32,068 bases of DNA, taken from assembly GCA_028287505.1 (NCBI GenBank), contig JAQBPN010000076.1, positions 1-32,068 on the forward strand, in the 5' to 3' direction. The translations under genes were made by a program, and so were the position numbers. Of this stretch, positions 5,381-13,668 are shown piece by piece. The stretch is from Fibrobacterota bacterium. Lineage in GTDB: Bacteria > Fibrobacterota > Fibrobacteria > UBA11236. The notes under the pieces were generated by a model, which did not search any database, had not been told where the DNA came from, and saw only the letters and a program-made list of their open reading frames with translations. Positions within the stretch are counted from its first letter, which is position 1. Every line of letters begins with the position of its first letter.

Positions 5381-8044
5381 TTACTTGTTCAAGGACCAGT
5401 TCGGGTCGCGCACCACTCCGGTCTTGGTGTACTCCACGTCTTCCTTGTTGTTGTCGAAGCGGAACACGGCCTTCCAGATGAATACGCCTTGGCCGGCTTT
5501 CTGTCCGTGTTCATCCTTCAGATCCCATACCAGGTAGCTCACCAGGCCGTGGTTGGCGATGCGCCTGCCGTTGTTCAGCTCTCCGTTGAATCCGAAACTC
5601 TGGCGCAGGTGGCGCACGAAGTTCGCATTGTTGTCGAAGATGCTGATGTCCACGATGTATTTGCCGGTGGAAACCACCTGCACCGTGCTGATGCCGGGAG
5701 GCAACGGGATCGGGATTTGCGATTCGTTCCCTACCGGCAGGGTTTTGATATCGGGTATGATGGGCTTGAACGTAGCGCCGGGCACGAATCCGTAGGGCGG
5801 GATCCACACCGTGGTGTAAGAGCCGCCGGCGGGGTCCTTGGTGGAATAGTCGTTATTGTCGCCCTTGCGGGGGTCATTGTTGACCACGAGAAAACCGGGC
5901 TGGCTGGCGGAGATGCCGACCACGGGCGGATAGCCGCGGAACAATTCGATTTGCTTGGGGGGAGGCGGGCCCGTCAGGGGAATCCCGTAAATGGGAGGCA
6001 CGTTGTGGTTCAAATCCGTATAGACCCCGTTGACATTGAGGTAGACGCAGTCGGTCGATTGGGGAGTGTAGGTTCCCGTGGTGCCCGTCGGGACCAGGAG
6101 CGTGAAGGTGGTGGAGGTGGCGTTCTGTCCGGGCTGCCCTTTGGGCACCACTTGCAGGGCGTGATCGTAATCCGTGCATTTGCCGTTCACGGGTTTGGAC
6201 CAGAGGAGCACGGCGTTCCAGGAGTTCTCGGTGCGAATCGGTTCCGAGGTGGTGAATACGAGCGTGTCCACGTTCAAGTCCGATCCCGGGGCCACCTTGG
6301 AGTTGTCGAAGGGCCGGATGTTGGCGGAGACGAGGATGGGGCCGATGGAATCCTTGATGAGAGGATGTTGGGAGAGGAAAACGCCGCCGGGGGGAAGGAT
6401 GCCAATCGGCGGGGCGGCAACGGGATCGGGTATGGAGGTCAAGCCCACGGGGTAGGGGTTGGCGGTGAGGTCGGCGATCACCACCGTGTTGCCGCTGGCG
6501 ATCAGGAATGAAAGTACCGGCTTGCCCTTGTTGAGGAATGCCGCTCCCACCTGGTTCCAGTAGATGGAGTCGATGGAGGATGGCAAAGCGGCCAAGGGCC
6601 GGGTGAATACGAAGAACACCTTGTCGCCCGCGCCGTCGCCGTCGGTGTCCTTGATGTAGGCGACCTTGACCGGGTTGATGGGCGGCGGCAGGTCAATGCA
6701 GGAAACGCTGAATTGCGTGCCGGGAAGGTTGACGTTGGTGCTGGCGTCCGGACCGGTAGTGTTCAATGTGAACGAGATGGCGTTGGCCTTGACCACCCCG
6801 CTGTTCACGTCCACCAGTTCGGTGCTGAGATCGATGGCGTTGTCGCCCGATTTCTTGAGGCCCACGGGCTTGTCCAGGTTCATCAGCCAGTGGCCGTCCG
6901 CCTGGCGCGAGAAATCGCTGGGCCCGGCGCGGCCAATCTGGGTGGGAGCCACGCTGTTGTTGGTCACCACCGCGCCGCTCGGGTTGTATTGGCGCAGGAT
7001 GACGTTGAGGATGCGCTCCACCACGGCCTTGAGGCTGTCCGGGCGGGAAGGCGGGATCAGGAAGAAGATACCGCCGGTCCGCTTGGAAAGGTCGCTCAGC
7101 TTGACCGTATCGGCCGAAGGCTTGCCCATGAAGATGCCGTACACCGGCGGCATGACACCGGGCATTTGCGGGTAAGTGGGAGCGATGACATCCAGATAGG
7201 CATCCGGATTGTTCGTGGGGTAGGTGGGACGCCCATCGGAAAGGAAGATTACGGCGTTGGTGGGATTGGGGGAAATGGCGGGCGTGAGCAGCCATTTCTT
7301 GGCGGTATCCAGGGAGGCTTTGTAGTTGGTGCCGTCGTTCAGGCTGGGCACCATGCCGGCCTTGACGCGGTTGATGTTGACCGGAGTGTTCAATTTCAGC
7401 GGGGCGATGGTGGGGTTGCGGACCGTGCCGGCGAAGCCCAGGAATCCGGCCGTGGAATTGGGCGCGCGCGCGGCCTGGAAGTCGATGGCCTGCTTGAACG
7501 CTATGCCGCGTTGGTTGAAAGGGTCGCCGGAAAAGGAGCTGCATGTAGTGGGGAGCTTGGCGGGATTGACGCGCGTGACCTGGCGGGTGCCGGCATCGTT
7601 GGGAATGGTGATGCTGCCGAATCCGTTCACGTCCGCATTCGTGAAACCGCAGTCCGCGGTCGATTCCAGGTACACGGTGTCCTTGAGGTCCTGGGAAATC
7701 CACACGTAGTTTATGCCCATGCTGCCGGATTGATCCATTACATACACGATGTCGGCGTTGCCGCCCGATTGCTCCGAGCTTTCGCAGAGGGAAAAGCCGG
7801 TGTTGTCGATGCGGGTCACGTTGGCGGGAATGACGATGTTCTTCTTGTCCAGACCGGCAAGGTCCAGGCATCGCTTGACCGTAACACCCGTGGTAAGCAC
7901 GGTATCGGCCCCGCGCAGGCTGCATTCCGCGCTGGGTTGGGCATGGACGCCGCCGGCGGCCAGAAAAACGGCCAGCAGGCCCGCCCAACGGCCCAGTATG
8001 GTCGGGCCCCGGAAAACGATGTGATCAAGATGATGAGTGGCCAT
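5381..8044 (-). CDS. Large secreted VWA-domain surface protein
   Basis: An 887-residue exported protein. A long signal peptide (residues 1-35, ending VHA-Q) precedes a short Cys-containing N-region. A von Willebrand factor A domain follows at about residues 97-340, with the metal-ion site residues D104, S106 and S108 (DQSGS), a Thr in a DGTNY loop and a later LSDGRP aspartate. All of these are intact, so it can bind a divalent metal and probably a ligand. About 450 residues of beta-rich sequence follow. The last 100 residues contain an ISIFDNNANFV...F pattern resembling FlgD-type Ig-like C-terminal domains. ATG 8044 has GAGGGA upstream. The gene is divergent from the Fic fusion gene. Likely an adhesin or surface-assembly protein; the ligand is not evident. 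Confidence 0.75.
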   Translation of the reverse strand: MATHHLDHIVFRGPTILGRWAGLLAVFLAAGGVHAQPSAECSLRGADTVLTTGVTVKRCLDLAGLDKKNIVIPANVTRIDNTGFSLCESSEQSGGNADIVYVMDQSGSMGINYVWISQDLKDTVYLESTADCGFTNADVNGFGSITIPNDAGTRQVTRVNPAKLPTTCSSFSGDPFNQRGIAFKQAIDFQAARAPNSTAGFLGFAGTVRNPTIAPLKLNTPVNINRVKAGMVPSLNDGTNYKASLDTAKKWLLTPAISPNPTNAVIFLSDGRPTYPTNNPDAYLDVIAPTYPQMPGVMPPVYGIFMGKPSADTVKLSDLSKRTGGIFFLIPPSRPDSLKAVVERILNVILRQYNPSGAVVTNNSVAPTQIGRAGPSDFSRQADGHWLMNLDKPVGLKKSGDNAIDLSTELVDVNSGVVKANAISFTLNTTGPDASTNVNLPGTQFSVSCIDLPPPINPVKVAYIKDTDGDGAGDKVFFVFTRPLAALPSSIDSIYWNQVGAAFLNKGKPVLSFLIASGNTVVIADLTANPYPVGLTSIPDPVAAPPIGILPPGGVFLSQHPLIKDSIGPILVSANIRPFDNSKVAPGSDLNVDTLVFTTSEPIRTENSWNAVLLWSKPVNGKCTDYDHALQVVPKGQPGQNATSTTFTLLVPTGTTGTYTPQSTDCVYLNVNGVYTDLNHNVPPIYGIPLTGPPPPKQIELFRGYPPVVGISASQPGFLVVNNDPRKGDNNDYSTKDPAGGSYTTVWIPPYGFVPGATFKPIIPDIKTLPVGNESQIPIPLPPGISTVQVVSTGKYIVDISIFDNNANFVRHLRQSFGFNGELNNGRRIANHGLVSYLVWDLKDEHGQKAGQGVFIWKAVFRFDNNKEDVEYTKTGVVRDPNWSLNK

Positions 8045-8220: not shown

Positions 8221-8249
8221 TTGCCTTATATTAAGGAATAGCTTAATAT
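8221..8249 (+). promoter_or_regulatory. Promoter with overlapping operator-like inverted repeat
   Basis: ATATTAAG (8228-8235) and CTTAATAT (8242-8249) are perfect 8-bp arms with a 6-base spacer. They overlap a plausible -35 TTGCCT (8221-8226), 17-base spacer and -10 TAATAT (8244-8249). A third half-site-like AATTAAGG follows at 8261, next to the ribosome site. The product of the next gene begins with an HTH domain, so self-repression is the simplest reading. Confidence 0.5.
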
Positions 8250-8278
8250 TTGAATTGACAAATTAAGGAGGAGCGGGC

Positions 8279-9223
8279 ATGAAAGAACGACGTAAACCTC
8301 ATCTGGTGCGTGAACAACTGGACCATTCCCTGGCGAAATTGAAAGCTCTGGCGGATTCCCGGCGTCCCGTCAAGGGTTGGCTGCGCGCCATCCGGACCGG
8401 ATTGGGAATGTCCGGCGTGGACCTGGCCCGGCGCTTGGGAGTCAAGCCTCCCCGGGTCGTCGAAATGGAAAAGAACGAGTTGGAAGGGGCCATCACTTTG
8501 AAGGTACTCGAGCGCGCCGCGGAGGCGATGGGGTGCTCGCTGGTTTATGCTCTCATTCCGAGAGCGGGATCCCTGGAGCAGGCTCTCCGGGATCAAGCCA
8601 AAACCCATTCCGCCGAAATCCCCGCCAGCGCGGTGAACAGTCTCGTCGATCCCGGGGATGCCGCGTCGCCTTTGACCGCGGATGAAACCGGCGGCTTGCG
8701 CCTGGCCCATATCACCACGCGTGGCGAGCTCAATCGCTGGGAACGGCAAGGGATCCAGGAAGCGGAAGCCTGGGCTTTCTCCCGGACCTGGAAGGAAATG
8801 CTCACGGAAAAATGGATCCGGAAGCTGCATGGGAAAATGTTCTCGCAAGTCTGGAAAGACGCCGGCGCTTTCCGGGACGCGGAGATGGAGCATGGCGCTC
8901 CTCCCAGGGAAATCGCCGCCCGTCTGGAGGAGCTTTGCGGCAACGTCAGCCATTGGGCCAAGGCGCGCGTCTATCCTCCCGATGAAGCCTGCGCCCGGTT
9001 CCATCATCGTCTCCTGTCCATCCGTCCCTTTGCGCGCGGCAACGGCAGGCTGGCCCGGATGATGGCGGATTTGCTTTCGGTCCAGGCATACGGCCGGGAG
9101 CGTTTCACCTGGGGTGCGGCGTCGATCGGTGCGGGACCCGAAGCGCGGAAACGCTACCAGGAAGCGTTGCGGGCGGCGGGCGGGCGGGATTACAAACCCC
9201 TGATGGCATTGTCCAGGTCCTGA
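8279..9223 (+). CDS. Fused mobile mystery protein A+B: HTH domain joined to a Fic domain lacking its catalytic His
   Basis: A 314-residue protein. Residues 28-95 form an HTH unit (GWLRAIRTGLGMSGVDLARR, then MEKNELEGAITLKVLERAAEAMGCSLVYALIP) typical of 'mobile mystery protein A' (TIGR02612). Residues 132-314 match 'mobile mystery protein B' (TIGR02613), a Fic/Doc-type protein: PLTADETGGL...ITTRGELNRWE, LHGKMFSQVWKDAGAFR and a C-terminal RYQEALRAA...YKPLMALSRS. In the families as known these are two adjacent genes; here they are one frame. The Fic core should read HPFxxGNGR but is R249-P-F-A-R-G-N-G-R257. The catalytic His codon is CGT (9023-9025), one transition from CAT, while the phosphate-binding GNGR loop is kept. 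AMPylation is therefore unlikely. ATG 8279 follows AAGGAGGAG. The upstream inverted repeat suggests autoregulation. Confidence 0.85.
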   Translation: MKERRKPHLVREQLDHSLAKLKALADSRRPVKGWLRAIRTGLGMSGVDLARRLGVKPPRVVEMEKNELEGAITLKVLERAAEAMGCSLVYALIPRAGSLEQALRDQAKTHSAEIPASAVNSLVDPGDAASPLTADETGGLRLAHITTRGELNRWERQGIQEAEAWAFSRTWKEMLTEKWIRKLHGKMFSQVWKDAGAFRDAEMEHGAPPREIAARLEELCGNVSHWAKARVYPPDEACARFHHRLLSIRPFARGNGRLARMMADLLSVQAYGRERFTWGAASIGAGPEARKRYQEALRAAGGRDYKPLMALSRS

Positions 9224-9333: not shown

Positions 9334-10149
9334 ATGCAAAGCATATTCGCCTACAACGATTTCCGCCTGTTCCTGAAGGATTATTTCGAGGATCAGAAAG
9401 CCCGCAAACCCGCGTTCTCCCACCGCTTCCTCCTGAAGAAACTGGGGATCACCTCCTCCGGATTCCTGGGAAACATCCTCTCCGGAAAGCGCAATCTGCC
9501 CCATTCGCATGTAAGCAGGCTGGCCGGGGCGTTGGGCCTGGGGCTCAAAGCCGCGCGCTATTTCGAAACCCTGGTCGCCTTCAACCAAGCCAAGTCGCTT
9601 TCCGAAAAGACGCGCCTGTTCCAGGAATTGGTTTCCCAAAAACCCGCCGACCTGAAAGTGCTGGACGATTTGCAGTTGCGGCTGTTCTCCACCTGGTACT
9701 ACGTGGCCATCCGGGAGTTGATCTTCTTCTTTCCCCTCCGCGACGAATACGAGAGTCTGGCCAGGAAATTGGTGCCGGCCATCAAGCCCCAGGAAGCGCG
9801 CGCCGCGGTGGAGGACCTCCTGGAGATAGGGTTGCTGGAACGGGACAAGCGGGGTTTTCTGCGGCAGAAGCAAAGCGTGTTGTCCACGGGCGACGAAGTC
9901 CGTTCGGTGCAGGCGGCCAGCTACCAGCGCGCCACCATGGATCTGGCCAAAGAGGCCATCGATCGGGTGAGGCATACGGACCGCGACATCTCCACCCTGA
10001 CCTTGACCCTGTCGGATGAAAGTTTCAGGACGGCGGTGGAAGAGATCCGGCAAATGCGCAAGCGCCTGCTGAAGCTGGCCGTGGACGAGGCCGGGCCGGA
10101 TCGGGTTTTCCAATGCAACCTTCAATTGTTTCCCTTGAGCAGAAAATGA
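9334..10149 (+). CDS. TIGR02147-family protein (Fibrobacter paralogous family)
   Basis: A 271-residue cytoplasmic protein that begins with the family's typical opening, IFAYNDFRLFLKDYFEDQK. FSHRFLLKKLGITSSGFLGNILSGKRNLP (residues 29-57) follows and reads as an HTH-like DNA-binding segment. The middle and C-terminal parts (STWYYVAIRELIF..., later S.LTLTLSDESF...EIRQMRKRLL) also follow the family. This family is expanded in Fibrobacter succinogenes, and its members are thought to be regulators, though their targets are not established. The next gene, 19 bases downstream, is a lipoprotein, so the pair is probably co-transcribed. ATG 9334 is used because the family's conserved N-terminus starts there; the upstream ATG at 9296 is out of frame. 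The ribosome site is poor, so translation may be weak or controlled. Confidence 0.85.
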   Translation: MQSIFAYNDFRLFLKDYFEDQKARKPAFSHRFLLKKLGITSSGFLGNILSGKRNLPHSHVSRLAGALGLGLKAARYFETLVAFNQAKSLSEKTRLFQELVSQKPADLKVLDDLQLRLFSTWYYVAIRELIFFFPLRDEYESLARKLVPAIKPQEARAAVEDLLEIGLLERDKRGFLRQKQSVLSTGDEVRSVQAASYQRATMDLAKEAIDRVRHTDRDISTLTLTLSDESFRTAVEEIRQMRKRLLKLAVDEAGPDRVFQCNLQLFPLSRK

Positions 10150-10168
10150 CGCGTAGCGGAGGTTCCAG

Positions 10169-12067
10169 ATGATGATTTCGAATTTGAGCGGCCGTCTGAT
10201 CCAAGCCGGTTTCCTGGCCATGATCGTGGCGGTATCGTCCTGCCTGCCCACTCAGCAGGAACCCCGCACCGCCGGCAGCGGCACCGAGCTTGGCAACGTG
10301 ATAGGACTCATCTACAGTCCGGACAACCGGCCCGCGGGAGAATTGGACGTCACCCTGTATCCCGGCGACGGAGACACCTCCCGCATCCGCCGGACCCGCA
10401 CGGACGCGAATGGTTCATTCGGCTTCGCATCCGTGATCGGTGCGTATCGGTTGATCTCCCTGGACGGCAGGGGCAATGGGCTCACGGTGGATTCCATCAA
10501 CCCCAAAGGGGACGAGAAGATCGATCTGTCCCGCCGGAACCTGGCGCCGCTGGGAGGCCTTTCCGCTTATGTTTCCATGAAGAACCCGCAGGAATTCAAA
10601 GTGGAGTTGAGCCTCCGGGGCACGCCATTCCGGAAGAATGCCGAGCCGAACGCGGGCTTCGACTGGGAAGGCATTCCCGCCGGCCGCTATTGGCTCTCCG
10701 TCTATTATCCGGGATCGAAGCCCCGGGAGATTCCGGTCACCATAGAAGCGGGCAGGACGACGGTGCTGCCGGACAGCATCGTCATGGATTTCGAATACTC
10801 ATCCGGGATCAGCAGCCGCGATACCATCTTGCTTTCCTCTTCCCAACTGCCGTATACCTTCGGCGACAAGGTATTCGCCAAGGACGAGGACGTAGTGGGC
10901 ATTTATTGGGTCCTGAACGGTAAAACCATTACGCCCACGGATGACAAGTCCCGCGGGGCCGAATGCAGGGTGACCCGCGATGAACTGAAGGCTGGGGAGG
11001 CCAACCTGCTGGAGCTCCGCATCATCCTCAAGGACACGGCGGTGGCCAGGCTGTGGTATATCGTGCTCGACGACAAAAAGGTCGCTCCCTGGCCCTATCA
11101 GGCGGTGCGGGCGGTACTCCTTTCCACCGAAGGGAACCCGCGGCCGGAGACGGAATACCCCATCCTGGGCCGTTTCAAGGTCATCGATCGCGCCATCCTC
11201 GCCCGGGAGGAGATGGCCTATTGGGGCTGGCAACCCGCCGCCGGCGCGGACACGGTCCTGCCCGCGGAAATAGACATCCCCGTCCCCCGGAGGTTACCCA
11301 ACTACGAGGGCTGCGGGTATTCTCCAAACAAGCTGACGCCCATCGCGGAATTCCCCGGAGACACGGTCACGTTCTTCCTGGAACCCGATACCGTCACGGG
11401 AGGACGTGTCTTCCGCATACGGTCGAATGAGCGCCTGGAGGATCTCAAGACCATGGCCTTCTATTCCCGCGTGGCCGCTTGGCCCCTGGCCGATATGTAC
11501 TCTTTCCAGGAGAAGTCGGAGTATTTCGACCTCACCATCGGTCCCGATGGTCCCAGCTTTCTGCATCTCGGACAAGGCCGGCTCTCCGGAGCCGGCTACG
11601 ACTGTCTCAAAATCTACCGGCGTTACTCGATTGACCCGGCCGGCACGGTCCGGGAAGCGTTGGCGGTCCCGGAGGGTTTCCACTCGGGGTCCTTGTTGCT
11701 CCATTACCGCAACGGCCTTCCGGACGGATTGTTGCCCGATGCATTGCCGGCCCGTGGCCGATACGTCTTCATCTCCGATTCCGGGAAGGGCCTTGCGGTT
11801 GCGGACAGCGTGAAGCTTGCGTTCCAACTGAGCGGAGAAGAACTGGCGGAGTTGCGCGCCTTGCTGACGGCCCTGCCCTCCCCCATACCCGCCGCATGGG
11901 AGAAGGATGTGCGGTACGCGCAGGCGGACTCCGCGGCGGCCATACGCTTTCTCTTCAGCGGCGACCGCGGGACGGTTCTGTTCCAAGGCTCCGACGCAGC
12001 GGATGCGGACAAGGCGGCCCTTTTCGGAAAAGTGGAGTCCTGGTTGCTTGGCAAGCGATTATTGTAA
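10169..12067 (+). CDS. Lipoprotein with carboxypeptidase-regulatory-like domain, partner of the TIGR02147 protein
   Basis: A 632-residue lipoprotein. The signal peptide ends in the lipobox VSSC (Cys25). A short linker leads to a beta-sandwich segment at about residues 42-200 (GNVIGLIYSPDNRPAGELDVTLYPGD... RTRTDANGSFGFASV... GAYRLI), the pattern of carboxypeptidase-regulatory-like domains, which are structural. A second such unit may occupy 130-195 (AGFDWEGIPAGRYWLSVY...). The remaining 430 residues are not recognised. They contain no clear catalytic motif and few cysteines. GGAGG 6 bases before ATG 10169 supports the start. It directly follows the TIGR02147-type gene and is followed by a hairpin, so the two form a likely two-gene unit. 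The function may be envelope sensing or binding, by inference only. Confidence 0.7.
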   Translation: MMISNLSGRLIQAGFLAMIVAVSSCLPTQQEPRTAGSGTELGNVIGLIYSPDNRPAGELDVTLYPGDGDTSRIRRTRTDANGSFGFASVIGAYRLISLDGRGNGLTVDSINPKGDEKIDLSRRNLAPLGGLSAYVSMKNPQEFKVELSLRGTPFRKNAEPNAGFDWEGIPAGRYWLSVYYPGSKPREIPVTIEAGRTTVLPDSIVMDFEYSSGISSRDTILLSSSQLPYTFGDKVFAKDEDVVGIYWVLNGKTITPTDDKSRGAECRVTRDELKAGEANLLELRIILKDTAVARLWYIVLDDKKVAPWPYQAVRAVLLSTEGNPRPETEYPILGRFKVIDRAILAREEMAYWGWQPAAGADTVLPAEIDIPVPRRLPNYEGCGYSPNKLTPIAEFPGDTVTFFLEPDTVTGGRVFRIRSNERLEDLKTMAFYSRVAAWPLADMYSFQEKSEYFDLTIGPDGPSFLHLGQGRLSGAGYDCLKIYRRYSIDPAGTVREALAVPEGFHSGSLLLHYRNGLPDGLLPDALPARGRYVFISDSGKGLAVADSVKLAFQLSGEELAELRALLTALPSPIPAAWEKDVRYAQADSAAAIRFLFSGDRGTVLFQGSDAADADKAALFGKVESWLLGKRLL

Positions 12068-12729: not shown

Positions 12730-13668
12730 ATGGCCAAAAAAAACTCAAGTGTGGTGGCTCTGGAATTGAGCCGCTCCTTTCTGAAGTTGGTCGAATTCCT
12801 CCCCGCCGAGAATCAGATATCCACTGTGGCCATCAAGCCCCTGGATGCCGCCCGGTGGGATGACGACGCGTATCTGGCCGAACAGGTCAGGCATAGCGTT
12901 TCCAAGCACGTATCCGAGCCCGACGCCGACCTGGTCACCGCCATGTCCGGCGAAAACGCCGTGATCCGGCAGGTGGAAGTCCCCAATTCCGAGGACAATA
13001 TCATCGATGCCATCGAATGGGAGATGGAACAGTATCTGATCCACCCCTTGGAGGAATACCTCCTGGATTACCAGTCTCTGGGGTCCAATCTCGATGAAAC
13101 CGCCCGTACCTATCTGGTCGCGGCCTATCGCCGATCGGAAGTGGAGCGTTTCAAGCGCATCATGGAGCAGAGCGGCTGCAACCTGGCCATCCTGGACCTG
13201 GACGTGTTCGCGGCCCAGAACGTCTATGAAGCCAATTATCCCGAGAAGCTTCCCCTCAAAACCTTCCTGATCAAGGCTGATTCCAACGTCATCAAGTGCA
13301 TCCGCACCCAGAACGGCCAGTTCCTGGGCTTCGAAAGCATTACCGTGGACGCGGCGTTCATGACCTCCGGTTCGGAAGCCAAGGCCGAACTGGTCTTGGG
13401 CATCGTGAACCAGGTCCGCGCTTCCTTGGATCGCGCCCAGGACGCCTGGGGCGGAGTGGACCAGATCGTTTTGTGCGGGGACCTGGCCCTGGACAATGAG
13501 TTCCGGGAAATGCTGGAAGCCAACATGACTTCCGAGATCACCCATCTGAACGCCTTCAAGGAAATCACGTTCGCCCTGAGCCCCGAAAAGAGCGCCGTGT
13601 TCCAGCCTTCCGCTCCGCAATGCGCGGGCGCGGTAGGGTTGGCCCTGCGCCGGCGCGGAGACAGTTGA
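12730..13668 (+). CDS. pilM: Type IV pilus assembly protein PilM-like (actin-fold)
   Basis: A 312-residue cytoplasmic protein. The N-terminal VVALELSRSFLKLVEFLP matches the first strand pair of the PilM/GspL actin-like fold. Residues 75-115 (VIRQVEVPNSED...AIEWEMEQYLIHPLEEYLLDYQSLG) are the most PilM-like block. A late VDQIVLCGDLAL strand corresponds to the C-terminal nucleotide-binding part. In type IV pili PilM forms a cytoplasmic ring and binds the N-terminus of PilN, whose likely gene starts 2 bases downstream. The closing AGAVGLALRR is also typical of PilM. No pilO, pilP or pilQ follows, which is unusual. Confidence 0.82.
   Translation: MAKKNSSVVALELSRSFLKLVEFLPAENQISTVAIKPLDAARWDDDAYLAEQVRHSVSKHVSEPDADLVTAMSGENAVIRQVEVPNSEDNIIDAIEWEMEQYLIHPLEEYLLDYQSLGSNLDETARTYLVAAYRRSEVERFKRIMEQSGCNLAILDLDVFAAQNVYEANYPEKLPLKTFLIKADSNVIKCIRTQNGQFLGFESITVDAAFMTSGSEAKAELVLGIVNQVRASLDRAQDAWGGVDQIVLCGDLALDNEFREMLEANMTSEITHLNAFKEITFALSPEKSAVFQPSAPQCAGAVGLALRRRGDS

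What the first reader, a model, noticed from the sequence alone, without database searches (positions are those of the whole stretch)
8279..9223. Mobile mystery A and B fused, with a Fic domain that has lost its catalytic histidine
Two genes normally adjacent (an HTH regulator and a Fic-type protein) are one 314-residue frame. The Fic core HPFxxGNGR reads R249-P-F-A-R-G-N-G-R257: the catalytic His codon is CGT, one transition from CAT, while the GNGR anion-binding loop and the rest of the fold are intact. If the frame is not a decaying pseudogene, this is a non-AMPylating Fic domain tethered to a DNA-binding domain, perhaps a nucleotide sensor or self-contained regulator.
Basis: partly seen in the sequence, partly recalled or inferred. 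Interest (0 to 1): 0.78.

Follow-up and report, generated by a model that had tools for sequence, protein, structure and literature searches.

The report
Dead-toxin regulator fused into one protein
A two-gene DNA-binding/Fic module that usually travels on mobile elements has, in one lineage of Fibrobacterota bacteria, become a single chromosomal protein that has lost both the Fic catalytic histidine and the segment predicted to restrain the Fic part, yet is kept by selection and sits beside its own private DNA-binding site, so it most likely now works as a self-controlling gene regulator.

Summary
Window 8279-9223 (+) is one 314-residue frame, mobile mystery A (TIGR02612) fused to mobile mystery B (TIGR02613, a Fic domain), with Arg249 at the catalytic histidine. 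It is neither a sequencing error nor a dying gene: a second species has the whole fusion (63-65% identity, same Arg), a third has the same Arg on a gene cut by a contig end, all at one chromosomal locus, with dN/dS about 0.2 or less in both domains. (1) The metal-site position is also Arg (R253; Asn in the family). (2) The fusion lacks A's C-terminal (S/T/H/N)-M-x-L-E-x-Q motif, invariant in 95 unfused A proteins and resembling the inhibitory helix of class I Fic antitoxins; an independent Gemmatimonadota lineage lost Glu, Gln and FIC Asn together. (3) A palindrome, ATTAAG-N6-CTTAAT, lies 31 bp upstream, once per genome, only in the two genomes holding the gene's 5' end. Best reading: a former Fic toxin-antitoxin module turned into a one-protein, non-AMPylating autorepressor, possibly keeping the arginine-rich Fic pocket as an anion sensor. 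DNA binding, loss of catalysis and any ligand are inferred, not shown.

The parts
8279..9223 (+). fused mobile mystery A + B gene, 314 aa plus stop
   Evidence: conserved full-length in G004
8228..8249 (.). candidate operator: perfect 8-bp inverted repeat ATATTAAG-GAATAG-CTTAATAT
   Evidence: conserved in G004 upstream of the same gene; ATTAAG-N6-CTTAAT occurs once in the 6.07-Mb genome, here, and in the genus only in the two genomes that hold the gene's 5' end
8265..8273 (+). Shine-Dalgarno-like AAGGAGGAG, overlapping a further TTAAG half-site
   Evidence: sequence; half-sites conserved in G004
8303..8620 (+). mobile mystery A part (residues 9-114) with HTH_3 at residues 35-90 (8381-8548)
   Evidence: 76% aa identity over residues 8-108 and dN/dS about 0.18 to G004
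8603..8662 (+). linker (residues 109-128): A's C-terminal MxLExQ segment is absent here; 25% identity to G004
   Evidence: low pLDDT at 114-119
8663..9214 (+). mobile mystery B / Fic domain (residues 129-312)
   Evidence: fold match Z 17-18 to FICD and VbhT
9023..9058 (+). degenerate FIC motif R249-PFA-R253-GNGRLAR260 (canonical HxFx(D/E/N)GNGRxxR)
9023..9025 (+). codon 249 CGT: Arg in place of the catalytic His (CGT in G004, CGC in G005)
5381..8044 (-). divergently transcribed vWA-type gene, context only; conserved neighbour also in species without the fusion

Best explanation
The gene is a domesticated mobile mystery module. In the unfused family, A is most likely the HTH autoregulator and antitoxin of a class I-like Fic toxin, B, with A's C-terminal helix motif (S/T/H/N)-M-x-L-E-x-Q acting as the inhibitory helix in trans. 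In the ancestor of three species of one Fibrobacterota genus, a deletion joined A's HTH domain to B and removed that inhibitory segment. The FIC site changed too: H249R removes the catalytic base and N253R puts a positive charge in the metal site. The product is best explained as a one-protein, non-AMPylating autorepressor: the HTH domain binds ATTAAG-N6-CTTAAT next to its own Shine-Dalgarno, and the Fic fold is kept as a scaffold, oligomerisation domain or ligand domain. Shown by computation: fusion, conservation, purifying selection, unique conserved palindrome, shared locus, co-loss of motif and active site. Inferred: DNA binding, repression, loss of catalysis, any ligand, and the antitoxin role of A in the family.
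For: Arg at 249 in three species, with R253, GNGR and R260 conserved in all three. dN/dS about 0.18 (HTH) and 0.16 (Fic) by NG86 with no stops. Palindrome conserved at the same place and otherwise absent from six genus genomes. Same chromosomal locus in G000, G004 and G005; the orthologous locus in the more distant G002 and G003 has no fusion. MxLExQ: M 95/95, L 94/95, E 95/95, Q 95/95 in unfused A; 74 pairs keep both the Glu and the FIC N/D, 6 loci (2 fused, 4 Gemmatimonadota) have lost both, no intact pair is mixed. Three orphan A proteins without B also lack the motif. Constraint is reversed: among 702 canonical locus comparisons the HTH is on average 13 points less conserved than B (best case +4), in the fused pair it is 10.5 points more conserved. 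The fold of an unfused A-B read as one chain is closest to class I toxins (VbhT, EcFicT, Fic-1/AntF). [quoted passage not shown] here the Glu lies at the end of a predicted helix.
Against: No experiment. No test of a B toxin of this family was found, so the toxin-antitoxin reading of the family is itself inferred. Position 253 is Asn in most of the family, and the HTH-Fic toxin CccR, which AMPylates FtsZ, has the motif HPFGNGNGR, so only the Arg, not the absence of an acidic residue, argues against metal binding. Only two independent lineages (fused; Gemmatimonadota) underlie the co-loss statistic. Domain placement in the models is not firm (pTM 0.62-0.66). A single second full-length sequence is a thin basis for dN/dS, and dS is close to saturation.
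Confidence: 0.68

Rival explanations
1. The Fic domain is still an enzyme with different chemistry: Arg249 and Arg253 support another reaction or another substrate, as some degenerate Fic proteins stay toxic.
For: Purifying selection on the Fic part and conserved GNGR and R260. Campylobacter fetus Fic2 is toxic with a degenerate core motif (PMC5651007).
Against: C. fetus Fic2 toxicity still needed its His; here the His is replaced. No separate antitoxin and no MxLExQ motif remain, which an active toxin should need. The Fic part is less conserved than the HTH part, unlike in 702 canonical comparisons.
Confidence: 0.1
2. A pseudogene or fusion scar in slow decay.
For: Fic part relaxed relative to the HTH; the linker evolves fast (25% identity); G005 has even lost the motif's Pro (IRAF).
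Against: dN/dS about 0.16-0.18 in both domains, no stops in three species, conserved operator-like palindrome, retention at one locus.
Confidence: 0.06
3. A decoy or anti-addiction protein: the dead B part sequesters targets or partners of incoming active mobile mystery systems, or the HTH represses their promoters.
For: The family is common on plasmids (251 records); the fused form keeps the HTH and the Fic fold.
Against: The genome holds no other copy of the family; the segment expected to neutralise B is lost; the palindrome was not found upstream of unfused A genes.
Confidence: 0.1
4. It mainly regulates the divergent vWA surface-protein gene rather than itself.
For: Divergent arrangement is conserved in G000 and G004.
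Against: The vWA gene is kept in G002 and G003 without the fusion and without the palindrome; the palindrome lies next to the fused gene's start, about 180 bp from the vWA start.
Confidence: 0.06

Closest known systems
Mobile mystery protein A/B pair (TIGR02612/TIGR02613)
   Same: Same order and homology; both curated cut-offs passed
   Different: One frame instead of two; A truncated at model position 108 of 150 and without MxLExQ; FIC motif R..R instead of H..N; fixed chromosomal locus
CccR of Yersinia pseudotuberculosis (PMC9755527)
   Same: One protein with Fic and HTH domains that represses its own promoter through a palindrome
   Different: CccR has the HTH at the C-terminus, keeps the His, AMPylates FtsZ and is secreted; sequence kinship was not tested
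Class I FicTA (VbhTA, EcFicTA, Fic-1/AntF)
   Same: Closest solved folds to an unfused mobile mystery A-B; Glu motif at the end of an antitoxin helix
   Different: Antitoxins are small three-helix proteins, no HTH domain described; here the inhibitory segment is gone and the His replaced
BepC of Bartonella (PMC8401265)
   Same: Fic domain for which no activity was found, acting by protein binding
   Different: Translocated effector, no HTH domain
Gemmatimonadota pairs L119, L048 (also L115, L122)
   Same: Independent lineage with the FIC Asn replaced, His replaced by Arg in two, and A's Glu and Gln lost
   Different: Still two genes; two of the four keep the His

Membership tests
TIGR02612 mobile mystery A | score over curated cut-off | tested here: met
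   123.6 against 122.6 bits
TIGR02612 mobile mystery A | full-length A with C-terminal MxLExQ | tested here: not met
   model 4-108 of 150; motif absent in both full fusions
TIGR02613 mobile mystery B | score over curated cut-off | tested here: met
   190 against 124.4 bits, 1-185 of 186
Fic AMP transferase | HxFx(D/E/N)GNGRxxR with catalytic His | tested here: not met
   R249 and R253; GNGR and R260 present
Fic fold | Fic-domain fold | tested here: met
   Pfam Fic 51.8 bits; VIA-align Z 17-18, rmsd 3-5, 169-190 residues in the top rows
Class I FicTA toxin-antitoxin | separate antitoxin carrying the inhibitory helix | tested here: not met
   one gene, no second copy in the genome, motif lost
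Class I FicTA toxin-antitoxin (the unfused mobile mystery pairs) | antitoxin helix motif with Glu facing the second FIC Arg | tested here: inconclusive
   invariant Glu at a predicted helix end; contact not measured
Autoregulatory HTH repressor | HTH domain plus own conserved palindromic operator-like site | tested here: met
   HTH_3; palindrome unique and conserved
Autoregulatory HTH repressor | binds and represses its own promoter | not testable with these tools
   needs gel shift and reporter

The most novel reading that the evidence does not exclude
A pseudo-Fic transcription factor: the dead active site, now carrying four conserved arginines in its motif (249, 253, 257, 260), binds an anionic ligand such as a nucleotide alarmone and thereby switches the tethered HTH repressor, a Fic domain turned from toxin into sensor.
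Probability: 0.25. Interest if true: 0.78.

Novelty: new variant of a known kind. Interest (0 to 1): 0.56.

Why it matters
Catalytically dead Fic proteins are little known, and a vertically inherited one fused to its own DNA-binding domain is a clean case of a toxin-antitoxin module turned into a regulator. The comparison also gives a testable answer to what mobile mystery A and B are: an HTH antitoxin with an invariant MxLExQ inhibitory motif and a Fic toxin. Only six papers of the held library mention the family or its model accessions, none in title or abstract.

Tried and rejected
Single-protein scans of viral contigs and genome contigs gave no relative; the phage collection had none. An apparent second fusion in two alphaproteobacterial genomes (open frame 397-411) was an A-TAA-B arrangement that happens to share a frame. 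A 447-aa frame in G1042 and a 277-aa frame in G1004 were also not fusions: an upstream extension of A, and an orphan A without the motif. The fused clade's palindrome was not found upstream of unfused A genes. A promoter consensus scan gave nothing. The first joint alignment misplaced the A rows and was replaced. Common ancestry of the fused clade and the Gemmatimonadota lineage was considered and not supported by the tree (quick method).

Full report
WHAT IS THERE. The frame at 8279-9223 (+) is real and encodes 314 residues. It passes the curated cut-offs of both mobile mystery A (123.6 against 122.6 bits, residues 9-114) and mobile mystery B (190 against 124.4 bits, residues 129-312), with HTH_3 and Fic domains in Pfam. 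The FIC motif reads R249-PFA-R253-GNGRLAR260. The genome holds no second copy.

IS IT AN ERROR OR A DYING GENE? No. Of six genomes of the genus, G004 has the whole fusion as one frame (63-65% identity by method) with RPFDRGNGR, and G005 has the C-terminal third, cut by a contig end, with RAFDRGNGR. Codon 249 is CGT, CGT and CGC. Between window and G004, NG86 gives dN and dS of 0.181 and 0.995 for the HTH part, 0.297 and 1.854 for the Fic part, and 0.741 and 1.614 for the linker; dS is near saturation, so the ratios are rough. The fusion sits at one chromosomal locus in all three species, beside the same row of genes (90% and 87% identity for the neighbour at 12730); in the more distant G003 and G002 (82% and 78%) the same locus lacks it. 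One gain followed by vertical inheritance is the simplest reading. The unfused family, by contrast, is common on plasmids (251 records).

HOW RARE. A scan of the genome collection (84,980 species) for H(R/K)LxxI-R-(P/A)FxxGNGR gave 12 loci. Five are mobile mystery B: the G004 and G005 copies, and three unfused pairs, from a Notoacmeibacter, a Nanopelagicales and a Gemmatimonadaceae assembly. No other fusion appeared among 385 genomes of the class of the Notoacmeibacter genome, 369 of the class of a Pusillimonas genome, or 298 of the phylum of the Gemmatimonadaceae genome, nor in the listed plasmid rows, where A and B are separate genes wherever both are annotated. The pattern is strict and would miss variants. 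In loci not picked for Arg, nearly all intact B proteins have His; only L119 has Arg.

WHAT THE FUSION LOST. Unfused A proteins carry a C-terminal motif, (S/T/H/N)-M-x-L-E-x-Q, with M, E and Q in 95 of 95 and L in 94. It resembles the (S/T)xxxE(G/N) motif of class I Fic antitoxins, whose Glu pairs with the second FIC arginine and blocks productive ATP binding (PMC8401265). The published antitoxins are small three-helix proteins, so this is a resemblance in sequence and position, not a shown homology. In 74 pairs the Glu and the FIC Asn/Asp are both kept; in the 2 fusions and 4 Gemmatimonadota pairs both are lost; none is mixed among intact pairs (Fisher p 3e-9). The tree puts these six in two separate lineages, so there are two independent events and the p-value overstates the evidence. 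Two R-type pairs that keep the Asn also keep the Glu. Eight further pairs from viral contigs and a plasmid keep both. Three orphan A proteins without an intact B lack the motif, two of them close relatives; twelve other A genes without an intact B found next to them keep it.

CONSTRAINT HAS MOVED. In 702 comparisons of canonical loci at 50-80% B identity, the HTH part is on average 13 points less conserved than B and never more than 4 points more. In the fused pair it is 10.5 points more conserved. Four of six comparisons inside the Gemmatimonadota lineage lean the same way. The comparisons are not independent of each other.

THE OPERATOR. Upstream lies ATATTAAG-GAATAG-CTTAATAT (8228-8249), with further TTAAG half-sites, one overlapping the Shine-Dalgarno. 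G004 keeps ATTAAG-GATAAG-CTTAATAT at the same place. ATTAAG-N6-CTTAAT occurs once in the window's genome and once in G004, each time here, and not at all in the other four genus genomes. G005's site would lie beyond its contig end.

STRUCTURE. AlphaFold2 gives a confident Fic fold for the fusion (mean pLDDT 91.9, pTM 0.66) that matches FICD and VbhT at Z 17-18. An unfused pair read through its stop as one chain (a device to model the pair, not a natural protein) gives pLDDT 93.2 and pTM 0.62; its best matches are class I toxins, and the motif Glu at residue 122 closes a long helix.

MECHANISM. Shown: fusion, conservation, selection, operator-like palindrome, shared locus, co-loss. Inferred: the protein binds the palindrome, represses itself, and no longer transfers nucleotides. 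The arginine-rich motif could hold an anion; that is a guess with a test. CccR, a Fic-HTH protein that represses its own promoter through a palindrome (PMC9755527), shows that this kind of arrangement can autoregulate, but it is an active AMP transferase.

NOVELTY. A new variant of a known kind. The most useful by-product is a testable assignment of mobile mystery A as an antitoxin with an invariant motif.

Noticed in passing
unfused mobile mystery A proteins, e.g. L049, L083, L085: Invariant C-terminal (S/T/H/N)-M-x-L-E-x-Q motif, M/E/Q in 95 of 95; looks like the inhibitory motif of Fic antitoxins, which would make mobile mystery A/B an HTH-type Fic toxin-antitoxin module.
   Followed up: yes
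L048, L115, L119, L122: Gemmatimonadota lineage of two-gene pairs in which the FIC Asn became Arg/His/Leu, A's motif Glu became Asp or Gly, its Gln was lost, and in two the catalytic His is Arg: a parallel to the fusion.
   Followed up: partly
L073, L075, L137: Orphan mobile mystery A genes without an intact B next to them that lack the MxLExQ motif; L137 lies beside a TraG/TraD-like gene (judged by eye).
   Followed up: partly
L036/L052, L037/L049: Two-gene pairs with His to Arg alone in B and an intact A motif, possibly recent inactivations or assembly errors.
   Followed up: no
window 9334-12067: A TIGR02147-like gene and a lipoprotein-like gene (named by eye) lie between the fusion and the conserved downstream genes in the window's genome; G004 has no room for them, so they look like a lineage-specific insertion.
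   Followed up: partly
window 5381-8044: Divergent secreted vWA-type gene (named by eye) with several partial paralogues in every genus genome.
   Followed up: no
L038, L044: Two Fic proteins outside the mobile mystery B group, from a Bradyrhizobium and a Pusillimonas, share HHRLLWIRPFLDGNGR, another Fic group with Arg at the catalytic position.
   Followed up: no
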